From assembly GCA_016194585.1 (NCBI GenBank), contig JACQBG010000034.1, forward strand, positions 1 through 50,146: 50,146 nt of DNA, read 5' to 3'. This DNA is from Gemmatimonadota bacterium. Lineage in GTDB: Bacteria > Gemmatimonadota > Gemmatimonadetes > Gemmatimonadales > Gemmatimonadaceae. The position numbers were made by a program, and so were the translations under genes. Below, one piece after another: positions 6,612 through 8,853 of the stretch (within the stretch, counting starts at the first letter, position 1; the number at the start of each line of letters is the position of its first letter). The notes beneath the pieces were generated by a model. That model ran no database searches. It saw only the letters and a program-made list of their open reading frames with translations, and was not told where the DNA came from.

Positions 6612-6643
6612 GTGGCGAAGTAGTGCTAGCACTACTTCGCCAC
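6612..6643. repeat. Perfect 32-bp palindrome at the junction of two mobile units
   Basis: GTGGCGAAGTAGTGCT is followed directly by its reverse complement. It reads as the right terminal repeat of element 1 and the left terminal repeat of element 2 sharing one CTAG (6626-6629). Confidence 0.9.
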
Positions 6644-6714
6644 TTTCCACCGCGCACCGCATCGAACCCGATCGTGGCTCACACGAGGACGCCATCAGCG
6701 CGAATACGTTCTCC

Positions 6715-6731
6715 GGAGATAGTGTCTCTGG
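6715..6731. promoter_or_regulatory. HipB-operator-like site at the far end of the cassette
   Basis: GGAGATAGTGTCTCTGG resembles the two sites upstream of hipB (TAGTGTCTC core). It lies downstream of hipA, near the left terminal repeat. Confidence 0.35.
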
Positions 6732-6859
6732 CGAAAGGTTCCGCGAATGGAGTGCCGATAGAACGTTGATGGCTGGACCGATTGCGCAATGCAATCTCGC
6801 GCGAATGACCGGGAGTGACCACCGCGCGCCACGTGTCGCTTCGCCCTCTCCGGCAAGCC

Positions 6860-8155
6860 CTATAACGCTAGTCGCGTCGTCAGGTCATCGGTCGTCGCGA
6901 TGACGGAAGCCTGCACCGCGTCGAGCGCGGCCGGCGTGCCGCCGAGCGTGTGCACTGCGTGCATCACGTCGAGCTGGTGGACACGGAGGCGCGTGATGAC
7001 TTCGGCGGCTAGGTCGCGGGCGCGGCGTTCGGTCAGGCGGAACTCACGCGCGGCCGTGGCGAGACTGCGCGGCGTGAGCGCGCGCGGATGGATGGTGCCC
7101 CCGAAGCCGAGGCCGAACGTGCGATCGAGCGCGGGATAAATCGCGGTGATCACGACGTCGTACGCGGGCGCGAGCTGGAGCTGTGCCGGCCCGACGTAGA
7201 CGACGCTCAGGTTCTTCGCATGGCCGTCGTAGTTGCCGATGGCCGCGTTCACCATCGCCCACCGGAAGAGGTGCTCGCGATCCGCGAGCGCGGTGATGCT
7301 CCAGCGCGTGAGAACGGCCACAAGCTCCTGATACGACGGCCCCCCGGTCGTCGCGTACTTACTCCGGGACGTGCGGCCCGTGATCTGACAGCCGTCTTCG
7401 GCGTGCCGGCGCGACACGAGCGGCTCTGTGCCGTCGGCCAGGTTGGCCGGGCCGGGCGCGACCGTGCGATCGAAGCGCGCTGACTCGTGGCACTCCGGGG
7501 CGACCACACAGCGTGCACTCGACGCGGTCGGCACGCCGGCGGCGGCCATCAACCGCATGCCGACCATCTCCGCCTCGAGCATGTGCGGGTAAAGGGCGTT
7601 GGGCTTCTTGACGACGACGGTACTCGGGGCGCCGTTGGCGGGGATCCGGTAGGTCGGGGCTCCACCCGGCACGTCCCCGACCGGCGGGAGGCGGTAGAGC
7701 GCGAGCTTCGGCTGCATCCCGGAGAGCGACGCACGCCCCACGGCCTGCCGGAGTTGGCCTTCCGCGACGGTGAACGCCTGCGTGAGCTCGTCTGGCGTCA
7801 GCGATGCGTAGCGCGGGGTGGCGGGTGGCTCAGTGCCCTCGGGCCACAAGTGCAGCGCGCCGGCGCAGTCGCCACCGACCACGCCGAGGAGACCGATGAT
7901 GTCGCCGACGTCGTGTTTCGTGCCCTGGGCCAAGACGCGACGTAGGTCGCCTTCGGGGAGCAGGTTCTCGAAGATCGCATCGACCGGTTGCCCGACGTAC
8001 GGGGCCGCGCGCACCGGACAGCGCACGCCGATGGCGAGTCCGGGATCCCGGGCGGCGACGACGGCCGGGTCGTAGGTGAAGCGCGCGCCGCCATTCGGCA
8101 CGTACTCGAGCACGCCGACGCGGTGCGTGTCCCGCCACACGACGAGCGCGCTCAT
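6860..8155 (-). CDS. hipA: HipA-family serine/threonine kinase toxin
   Basis: HipA toxins phosphorylate translation factors (glutamyl-tRNA synthetase in E. coli) and cause growth arrest. This 431-residue protein is full length: an N-terminal coupled domain (1-105), SLSGMQPKLAL (143-153, lysine 150), VVKKPN (181-186), the RFDR motif (227-230), the catalytic loop NYDGHAKNLS (Asp310, Asn315) and the metal-binding APAYDV (Asp333). All kinase motifs are present, so the toxin should be active. Its ATG overlaps the hipB stop by ATGA, the usual antitoxin-first coupling. It sits inside an inverted-repeat-bounded cassette, so the toxin-antitoxin pair may also stabilise the cassette. The actual target is unknown. 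Confidence 0.9.
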   Translation of the reverse strand: MSALVVWRDTHRVGVLEYVPNGGARFTYDPAVVAARDPGLAIGVRCPVRAAPYVGQPVDAIFENLLPEGDLRRVLAQGTKHDVGDIIGLLGVVGGDCAGALHLWPEGTEPPATPRYASLTPDELTQAFTVAEGQLRQAVGRASLSGMQPKLALYRLPPVGDVPGGAPTYRIPANGAPSTVVVKKPNALYPHMLEAEMVGMRLMAAAGVPTASSARCVVAPECHESARFDRTVAPGPANLADGTEPLVSRRHAEDGCQITGRTSRSKYATTGGPSYQELVAVLTRWSITALADREHLFRWAMVNAAIGNYDGHAKNLSVVYVGPAQLQLAPAYDVVITAIYPALDRTFGLGFGGTIHPRALTPRSLATAAREFRLTERRARDLAAEVITRLRVHQLDVMHAVHTLGGTPAALDAVQASVIATTDDLTTRLAL

Positions 8156-8490
8156 GCGTCCGACGGGGGCGGGGTGGCCGAGTTGGGTGTTGCGCGGAGC
8201 GAGCGTGCCGCGTCGCGCGGCACGAGCACGACGTCGAGGCCCAAGTCCGCGAGCACCTGGAGCGTGAGGTCGAGTTGCGACCCGCCCGCACCGCGCTCCA
8301 AGTCGCCGAGCATGCTGACGCTCACGCCGAGTCGGGATGCGGCGTCGACCTGCCGGCCTAGCGTGTCGGCGCGCACGGTGCGGACGACGTCGCCGACATC
8401 AGTTGGGGACACGACGCACAAGCCGCGACGAGCGACGTCGCGGGCGGGCGTTCGCAGATGCTCGAACTCAGGTCTGGTGCGTCGAGGCAT
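8152..8490 (-). CDS. hipB: HipB-like XRE-family antitoxin
   Basis: A 112-residue protein with a helix-turn-helix (about residues 35-85: LGRQVDAASRLGVSVSMLGDLERG, then the LTLQVLADLGLDVVLVP strand typical of HipB-type regulators). It should bind HipA, neutralise it and repress the operon. The N-terminus is 20-30 residues longer than in short HipB proteins, and the Pro/Ser-rich C-terminus ends in the ATGA overlap with hipA. ATG 8490 is preceded by a purine-rich AAGAGA. Two copies of a TAGTGTCTC-type site lie just upstream. Confidence 0.85.
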   Translation of the reverse strand: MPRRTRPEFEHLRTPARDVARRGLCVVSPTDVGDVVRTVRADTLGRQVDAASRLGVSVSMLGDLERGAGGSQLDLTLQVLADLGLDVVLVPRDAARSLRATPNSATPPPSDA

Positions 8491-8533
8491 AGTGTCTCTT
8501 GGCTAAATACTCGATAGGAGATATAGTGTCTCC
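8488..8533. promoter_or_regulatory. hipBA promoter region with two operator-like repeats
   Basis: GGAGATATAGTGTCTCC (8517-8533) is an imperfect palindrome, and ATAGTGTCTC recurs at 8489-8498 over the hipB start. The region between and upstream (CTAAATATGCTAAAACACAG) is markedly AT-rich and suits a promoter. The spaced repeats fit cooperative autorepression by HipB. Confidence 0.5.
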
Positions 8534-8833
8534 TGTAGTTCTAAATATGCTAAAACACAGATACAGTAAAATCAAGAGCTAAAGTGGCCATTGGAGCTTT
8601 AGCTGTAGTTCGACAAACACAACGTCACTCGAACCGATCCACCGCCAAGATACGATCTCCACTGCAGCAGTATTCCGGGACCTATGCCCTCGCGGCGCTC
8701 CTCCCCGACTCGATCAGAATCCATCGAGACCAGTAAGAGACGGCCCAACATTCGGTCCTGATGGTCAGATAGAGTCGAGAACGCAGCGCGCGCTGTATCA
8801 AGAGCGGAGCCCTCGCTTCCCACACCGGATGAG
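8534..8833. other. Non-coding right flank of the hipBA cassette
   Basis: AT-rich near 8540-8600, then mixed sequence. A 74-codon minus-strand frame at 8599-8823 has no ribosome site or recognisable motif. I see no supported gene. Confidence 0.5.
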
Positions 8834-8853
8834 AAGTGGCGAAGTAGTGCTAG
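8834..8853. repeat. Right terminal inverted repeat of element 2
   Basis: AAGTGGCGAAGTAGTGCTAG, the exact reverse complement of 2495-2514; CTAG is the outer border. Confidence 0.85.

What the first reader, a model, noticed from the sequence alone, without database searches (positions are those of the whole stretch)
6626..8853. hipBA toxin-antitoxin operon packaged as a transposase-free cassette
Seen: complete HipA kinase motifs and HipB, enclosed by exact 20-bp inverted ends and nothing else. This matches the idea of mobile insertion cassettes moved in trans. A toxin-antitoxin payload could make the cassette hard to lose.
Basis: partly seen in the sequence, partly recalled or inferred. Interest (0 to 1): 0.75.

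Follow-up and report, generated by a model that had tools for sequence, protein, structure and literature searches.

The report
Jumping toxin-antitoxin gene cassette
A bacterial toxin-antitoxin gene pair sits between two copies of a transposon end with no transposase of its own, and related bacteria carry other single genes between the same ends, stacked side by side at a four-letter target, which suggests a little-known way of shuffling genes.

Summary
Confirmed, and larger than reported. Exact 20-bp inverted ends (6626-6645, 8834-8853) enclose hipB-hipA and no transposase. The same end occurs twice more: the hipBA cassette (E2, 6626-8853) abuts a second element (E1, 2495-6629) across one shared CTAG. 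E1 carries an IS701-family transposase with two in-frame TGA stops plus two passenger genes. Relatives on plasmids have CTAG-flanked ends of the same type, so the ends are IS701 terminal repeats and E2 is best read as a mobile insertion cassette moved in trans. Of 28 other hipA loci none has paired ends, but related genomes carry other transposase-free genes between these ends (DUF4440, small secreted, 154-aa and phosphatase-like proteins). At six of eight sites the modules abut others across shared CTAGs, including modules with IS5- or IS630-type ends. Two sister species hold entirely different modules between the same flanks. A motif-free scan found no such module in about 0.9 Mb of background. 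Mobile insertion cassettes are known; IS701-type ones, a hipBA cargo and mixed-end CTAG arrays look new. Movement in trans and addiction remain inferred.

The parts
6626..8853 (.). E2: transposase-free hipBA cassette (2228 bp), CTAG at both edges
6626..6645 (+). E2 left terminal repeat CTAGCACTACTTCGCCACTT
8834..8853 (-). E2 right terminal repeat, exact inverted copy
   Evidence: the last 61 nt of E2 resemble the right end of E3 (85%)
6860..8155 (-). hipA, 431 aa, kinase motifs complete
8152..8490 (-). hipB-like antitoxin, 112 aa, overlaps the hipA start
8489..8532 (.). two ATAGTGTCTC motifs (8489, 8523) at the hipB start and upstream, operator-like
   Evidence: role inferred
6719..6728 (+). 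third ATAGTGTCTC motif near the left end of E2
   Evidence: its GTGTCTC core is not seen near the six closest hipBA relatives
6626..6629 (.). CTAG shared by E1 and E2
2495..6629 (.). E1: abutting element with the same ends (4135 bp), decayed IS701 transposase plus two passenger genes
2495..2514 (+). E1 left terminal repeat, exact
6610..6629 (-). E1 right terminal repeat (1 mismatch)
2573..3955 (+). IS701-family transposase reading frame with TGA stops at 2804-2806 and 3050-3052
   Evidence: (383 bits over the whole profile)
4166..5521 (+). E1 passenger: lipoprotein-like ORF, no Pfam match
   Evidence: relative in E3
5389..6405 (+). E1 passenger: secreted-protein-like ORF (probable start 5539), no Pfam match
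1158..2474 (-). left flank: ImuA-like gene
   Evidence: adjacent to the right-flank gene in relatives
9133..9921 (+). right flank: start of a membrane-protein-like ORF that directly neighbours imuA in relatives

Best explanation
E2 is a mobile insertion cassette. It is a hipBA operon bounded by IS701-family (ISBj6-clade) terminal repeats, without a transposase, inserted at a CTAG. A CTAG-targeting IS701-family transposase acting in trans recognised the roughly 20-bp ends and placed the cassette beside E1, a longer relative with its own broken transposase, so that the two share one CTAG. More widely, every such insertion leaves CTAG at both edges. CTAG is rare, and IS701-, IS5- and IS630-type elements in this group all sit at it, so these regenerated sites collect further cassettes and form arrays of single-gene modules that are replaced between species. 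hipBA would be expressed from its own promoter and might make loss of the array costly. Shown: ends, CTAGs, abutment, other cargo, IS701 assignment, different contents between orthologous flanks. Inferred: movement in trans, order of insertion, addiction, operator function.
For: Four exact ends in the window, 0.02 expected. Same ends around other transposase-free genes in G021 (two), G024 and G128. Different cassettes share only the first 18-22 nt. E1 encodes an IS701 transposase and plasmid relatives at about 63% identity have ends CTAGCACTAC... flanked by CTAG. The ends fit the printed IS701 consensus ---YACT-Y--YR and 4-bp repeat (PMC2266710). A Myxococcales MAG has the same 18-bp end in 8 stretches leading into an IS701-like N-terminus. 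imuA and the right-flank gene are adjacent without cassettes in 3 of 5 relatives read. G021 and G024 have the same left and right flanks but different modules between. A motif-free scan for CTAG-bounded inverted ends found modules only at the array loci, none in about 0.9 Mb of other stretches.
Against: No intact IS701 transposase with these ends was found in the host or genus. Twenty-three other IS701 hits in the family lack paired ends. An exact pre-insertion CTAG for E1+E2 was not recovered: G030 lacks about 410 bp that G000 has right of E2. No second copy of the hipBA cassette is known. HipB is below its curated cut-off. All genomes with arrays are draft assemblies or MAGs.
Confidence: 0.86

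Rival explanations
1. E1 and E2 are one 6.36-kb compound element (2495-8853) that moves as a unit with its own, now broken, transposase. hipBA is then an ordinary passenger of a transposon rather than an independent cassette.
For: The outer ends 2495 and 8853 match as well as the inner pairs (18 of 20). The last 61 nt of E2 resemble the right end of E3, which also has a transposase remnant and relatives of the E1 passengers (85%).
Against: The central junction 6610-6645 is two complete ends around one CTAG. Shorter transposase-free cassettes with the same ends stand in other genomes.
Confidence: 0.25
2. hipBA is an old chromosomal operon that happens to lie between two independently decayed IS701 copies (solo ends), and never moved as a cassette.
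For: Closest hipBA relatives (60-63% identity) lack the ends. The transposase of the neighbouring element is broken.
Against: No IS701 coding sequence remains inside E2. Boundaries are CTAG to CTAG. imuA and the right-flank gene are adjacent without hipBA in 3 of 5 relatives read. The same architecture recurs with other cargo.
Confidence: 0.05
3. The ends are an unrelated palindromic regulatory repeat or a chance match.
For: 6610-6645 alone looks like a long palindrome.
Against: 0.02 expected; reversed-pattern control without a match in 179 genomes at 1 mismatch; ends of the same type are the termini of transposase-bearing IS701 elements; CTAG at each edge.
Confidence: 0.01

Closest known systems
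Mobile insertion cassettes (MIC231 of Bacillus cereus; mic-qnrD, mic-qnrS2)
   Same: Inverted IS ends, cargo gene instead of transposase, target duplication; MIC231A1 is moved in trans by the IS231A transposase (passages of PMC3913671)
   Different: Ends are IS701-type, not IS231-type; cargo is a toxin-antitoxin pair; modules stand in CTAG-abutted arrays with IS5- and IS630-type neighbours
IS701 family, ISBj6 clade
   Same: Ends CTAGCACTAC..., CTAG on both sides, transposase about 63% identical to E1
   Different: Ordinary members are about 1.4 kb with transposase only; here 0.5-4.1 kb with cargo. [quoted passage not shown]
Toxin-antitoxin pairs of Tn3-family transposons (PMC7157771)
   Same: Toxin-antitoxin genes carried by a transposon (passages)
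   Different: [quoted passage not shown] the words HipA and HipB do not occur in the main text
Integron cassette arrays
   Same: Works like: head-to-tail single-gene modules with different contents between strains (recalled)
   Different: Here modules are bounded by transposon inverted repeats and CTAG; no integrase or attC was sought
TIMEs and MITEs (PMC4133298)
   Same: Non-autonomous elements with transposon ends
   Different: TIMEs have 38-bp Tn3 ends and 5-6 bp duplications; MITEs are small elements of about 30-300 bp (passages)

Membership tests
Mobile insertion cassette (MIC) | Two inverted repeats bracket the cargo | tested here: met
Mobile insertion cassette (MIC) | No transposase gene inside | tested here: met
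   E2 holds only hipA and hipB; the only IS701 hit of the genome lies in E1
Mobile insertion cassette (MIC) | Duplicated target at the edges | tested here: inconclusive
   CTAG at all three junctions, but CTAG is part of the end motif and the exact empty site was not recovered
Mobile insertion cassette (MIC) | Moved in trans by a transposase with the same ends | not testable with these tools
   Candidate family identified; movement needs an experiment
IS701 family ends | Terminal consensus ---YACT-Y--YR and 4-bp direct repeat (PMC2266710 Table 1) | tested here: met
   TAG-CACT-A-C-TT-C-G at all E1/E2 ends; CTAG-flanked relatives
IS701 family transposase (E1) | NF033540 above cut-off over the whole profile | tested here: met
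   383 bits, positions 1-362 of 363
IS701 family transposase (E1) | Intact reading frame | tested here: not met
   two in-frame TGA
HipBA toxin-antitoxin | HipA kinase domains and catalytic motifs | tested here: met
HipBA toxin-antitoxin | HipB-family antitoxin encoded upstream | tested here: inconclusive
   TIGR03070 E 1.1e-6 but 28.4 of 71.65 bits
HipBA toxin-antitoxin | Toxicity neutralised by the partner | not testable with these tools
   needs expression tests
Integron cassette | Integrase and attC sites | not tested
   boundaries are transposon inverted repeats
MITE | Short, non-coding | tested here: not met
   2228 bp with two genes

The most novel reading that the evidence does not exclude
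Members of the family Gemmatimonadaceae carry an integron-like gene-shuffling system without an integrase. Single-gene cassettes with ends of three unrelated IS families (IS701, IS5, IS630) converge on the same CTAG. Each insertion regenerates CTAG at its edge, so arrays grow and are replaced at fixed sites, and a hipBA cassette acts as an addiction module for its array.
Probability: 0.35. Interest if true: 0.82.

Novelty: new variant of a known kind. Interest (0 to 1): 0.62.

Why it matters
It shows gene capture between IS701 ends with diverse ordinary cargo in environmental bacteria, outside the antibiotic-resistance setting where such cassettes are usually noticed. It also suggests a simple rule (insert at rare CTAG, leave CTAG behind) by which unrelated transposons could build integron-like arrays. 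A toxin-antitoxin cargo gives a testable case of whether addiction stabilises a non-autonomous cassette.

Tried and rejected
Chance or regulatory palindrome: rejected. Special preference for stop codons: CTAG often forms a C-TAG stop at the insertion edges, but background CTAGs do so about as often (23 of 44 and 6 of 6), so no preference is claimed. A host copy of an intact IS701: not found. IS701 transposase in the Myxococcales MAG: the profile found none, since contigs break 120-140 bp into the element; the N-terminal resemblance was read by eye. Viral contigs: no exact match to the IS701-type or IS5-type end. Plasmids: no DNA match to E2; HipA only below 60% identity. Defence-system library: only weak hits. 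The ends of Deinococcus IS5 relatives gave modest support in 1 of 3; the IS5 assignment rests on the transposase inside the bounded module of E3. IS630 relatives had matching ends in 3 of 3. The orphan ends in G021 C120 and G126 had no partner in the stretch held.

Full report
Observation. The exact 20-bp inverted ends are at 6626-6645 and 8834-8853. The 18-bp core has four exact matches in the window, against 0.02 expected by shuffling. Between them lie hipB (8152-8490) and hipA (6860-8155), both on the minus strand and overlapping by 4 nt. HipA has both Pfam domains and aligns to E. coli HipA structures over its kinase motifs. HipB is HipB-like but below its curated cut-off.

A second element. 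The other two copies of the end, at 2495-2514 and 6610-6629, bound E1 (4135 bp), which touches the hipBA cassette E2 (2228 bp) so that one CTAG (6626-6629) serves both. E1 contains a full-length IS701-family transposase frame (383 bits) with two in-frame TGA stops and no frameshift. Both TGAs fall where five of five plasmid relatives have tryptophan. E1 also has a lipoprotein-like and a secreted-protein-like gene without Pfam match. It is the only IS701 hit in the genome and among the 18 genomes of the genus searched.

What the ends are. IS701 elements on plasmids, about 63% identical to the E1 transposase, end in CTAGCACTACTTTGGCAG or CTAGCACTACCTGGGCACTT and the like, with CTAG at both edges (five loci read; both ends clear in four, one end only in L097). 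A printed table gives IS701 ends as ---YACT-Y--YR with 4-bp repeats (passages of PMC2266710), which these ends fit. In one scan of genome contigs, 12 stretches held the 18-bp end. Three were the Gemmatimonad loci described below, 8 a Myxococcales MAG where the end leads into an IS701-like N-terminus, and 1 a single Paraglaciecola match without such a context.

Other cargo. With up to 1 mismatch the end occurs in 5 of 179 genomes of the family. With up to 2 mismatches it occurs in 7 of 395 genomes across the phylum, and with up to 3 in 17 of 179 of the family, many of those single matches of the chance kind. Paired ends occur in G000, G021, G024 and G128. The transposase-free cassettes besides E2 are: G021 C3, 1002 bp, DUF4440 protein; G021 C141, 529 bp, small secreted protein without Pfam match; G024 C212, 682 bp, 154-aa protein without a significant family; G128 C15, 572 bp, a phosphatase-like protein with a weak DSPc match, E 0.0074. 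Different cassettes share only about 18-22 nt at the ends, except that the right ends of E2 and E3 agree over 61 nt at 85%.

hipBA relatives. Of 29 hipA matches in the family, the 28 other loci have no paired ends within the up to 1.5 kb held on each side (two had single matches with 4-5 mismatches). So the operon appears to have been recruited between ends that also carry other genes.

Site. In G030, imuA and the right-flank gene lie about 110 bp apart (L130 4823 and 4933), and in G035 and G029 about 290 bp. In the window the corresponding points are about 6.9 kb apart. In G021 and G036 no imuA was found next to the gene. The left flank of E1 is conserved with G030 up to about 14 bp before the CTAG, but about 410 bp right of E2 has no counterpart there, so the exact empty site was not recovered.

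Arrays. Listing CTAG-bounded segments showed that these cassettes abut others. G021 C3 is IS630 element (transposase open throughout) / 690-bp GNAT cassette with IS5-type ends / DUF4440 cassette. G024 is 770-bp RibD_C cassette with IS5-type ends / 154-aa cassette. G021 C141 is IS630 element / 803-bp Big_2 lipoprotein module with one IS630-type end / 529-bp cassette. G000 C38 (E3) mixes IS701-type ends, an IS5 transposase module and an IS5-type end. Six of eight sites with IS701-type ends have an abutting second module or end (window, L008, L022, L023, L024, L025; not L026, L027). IS630 relatives on plasmids also have CTAG-edged ends of the matching type (3 of 3). G021 and G024 share the left flank up to the CTA of the first module (96%) and the right flank from the last CTAG on (92%), with entirely different modules between.

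Specificity. The three end motifs gave 16, 9 and 4 matches in fifteen stretches and none after shuffling. In 161 kb of neighbouring stretches there was no IS5- or IS630-type end and only two weak IS701-type matches. In 299 kb of G021 and 392 kb of G000 there was one weak IS5-type match. A motif-free scan for CTAG-bounded modules with matching inverted ends returned modules only at window, L008, L022, L023, L024 and L027, and none in L130-L136, L142-L153 and L160-L199, about 0.9 Mb; it also returned none at L025 and L026, where only single ends are known.

Mechanism. The best reading is a mobile insertion cassette moved in trans by a CTAG-directed IS701-family transposase. Ends, CTAG edges, tandem arrangement, other cargo and different contents at one site are shown. 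Transposition in trans, the order of insertions, any addiction effect, and the role of the three ATAGTGTCTC motifs found only in E2 within the window are inferred. The main rival is that E1 and E2 move together as one compound element.

Literature. Mobile insertion cassettes are known (passages of PMC3913671), and toxin-antitoxin pairs occur in Tn3 transposons (passages of PMC7157771). A paper on active IS701 elements in Geobacillus reports 4-9 bp repeats and no target consensus (passages of PMC8024623), so CTAG targeting is not a feature of every IS701 element. The searches for mobile insertion cassette with transposase, IS701 with passenger gene, toxin-antitoxin with mobile insertion cassette, IS701 with non-autonomous, hipBA with transposon and passenger, Gemmatimona with IS701, toxin-antitoxin with transposon, inverted repeats, non-autonomous and passenger genes, IS701 with CTAG, mobile insertion cassette with array, and CTAG with gene cassette and related terms listed no paper that, from its title, the start of its abstract or the passages read, describes such a cassette or array. 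Most listed papers were not opened and most subscription journals are not held, so absence from print is not established.

Noticed in passing
window 2804-2806 and 3050-3052: Both stops in the E1 transposase are TGA at positions where five of five plasmid relatives have tryptophan. Two TGG-to-TGA changes are the simple reading.
   Followed up: partly
L008:3656-9571 (G000 C38): A second, older mosaic array in the same genome with relatives of the E1 passengers, an IS5-family transposase in two overlapping frames, and mixed IS701/IS5 ends.
   Followed up: partly
window 8854-9262: About 410 bp right of E2 has no counterpart in G030 and may be another decayed module.
   Followed up: no
window 4166-6405; L008:6637-9023: A lipoprotein-like gene followed by a secreted-protein gene recurs in both G000 arrays. 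Weak relatives of the lipoprotein occur in 3 other genomes of 179. Function unknown.
   Followed up: partly
window 2334-2418 and 17424-17509: Runs of G-rich GGGGGA and GGGACA repeats at two places.
   Followed up: no
window 35928-36130 and 39459-39526: Related inverted repeats lie on both sides of a large ORF region, resembling dispersed intergenic repeats.
   Followed up: no
JANYHK contigs (L028-L032, L034, L035, L039): A repeated IS701-like element with the same 18-bp end coincides with 8 contig ends of a Myxococcales MAG.
   Followed up: partly
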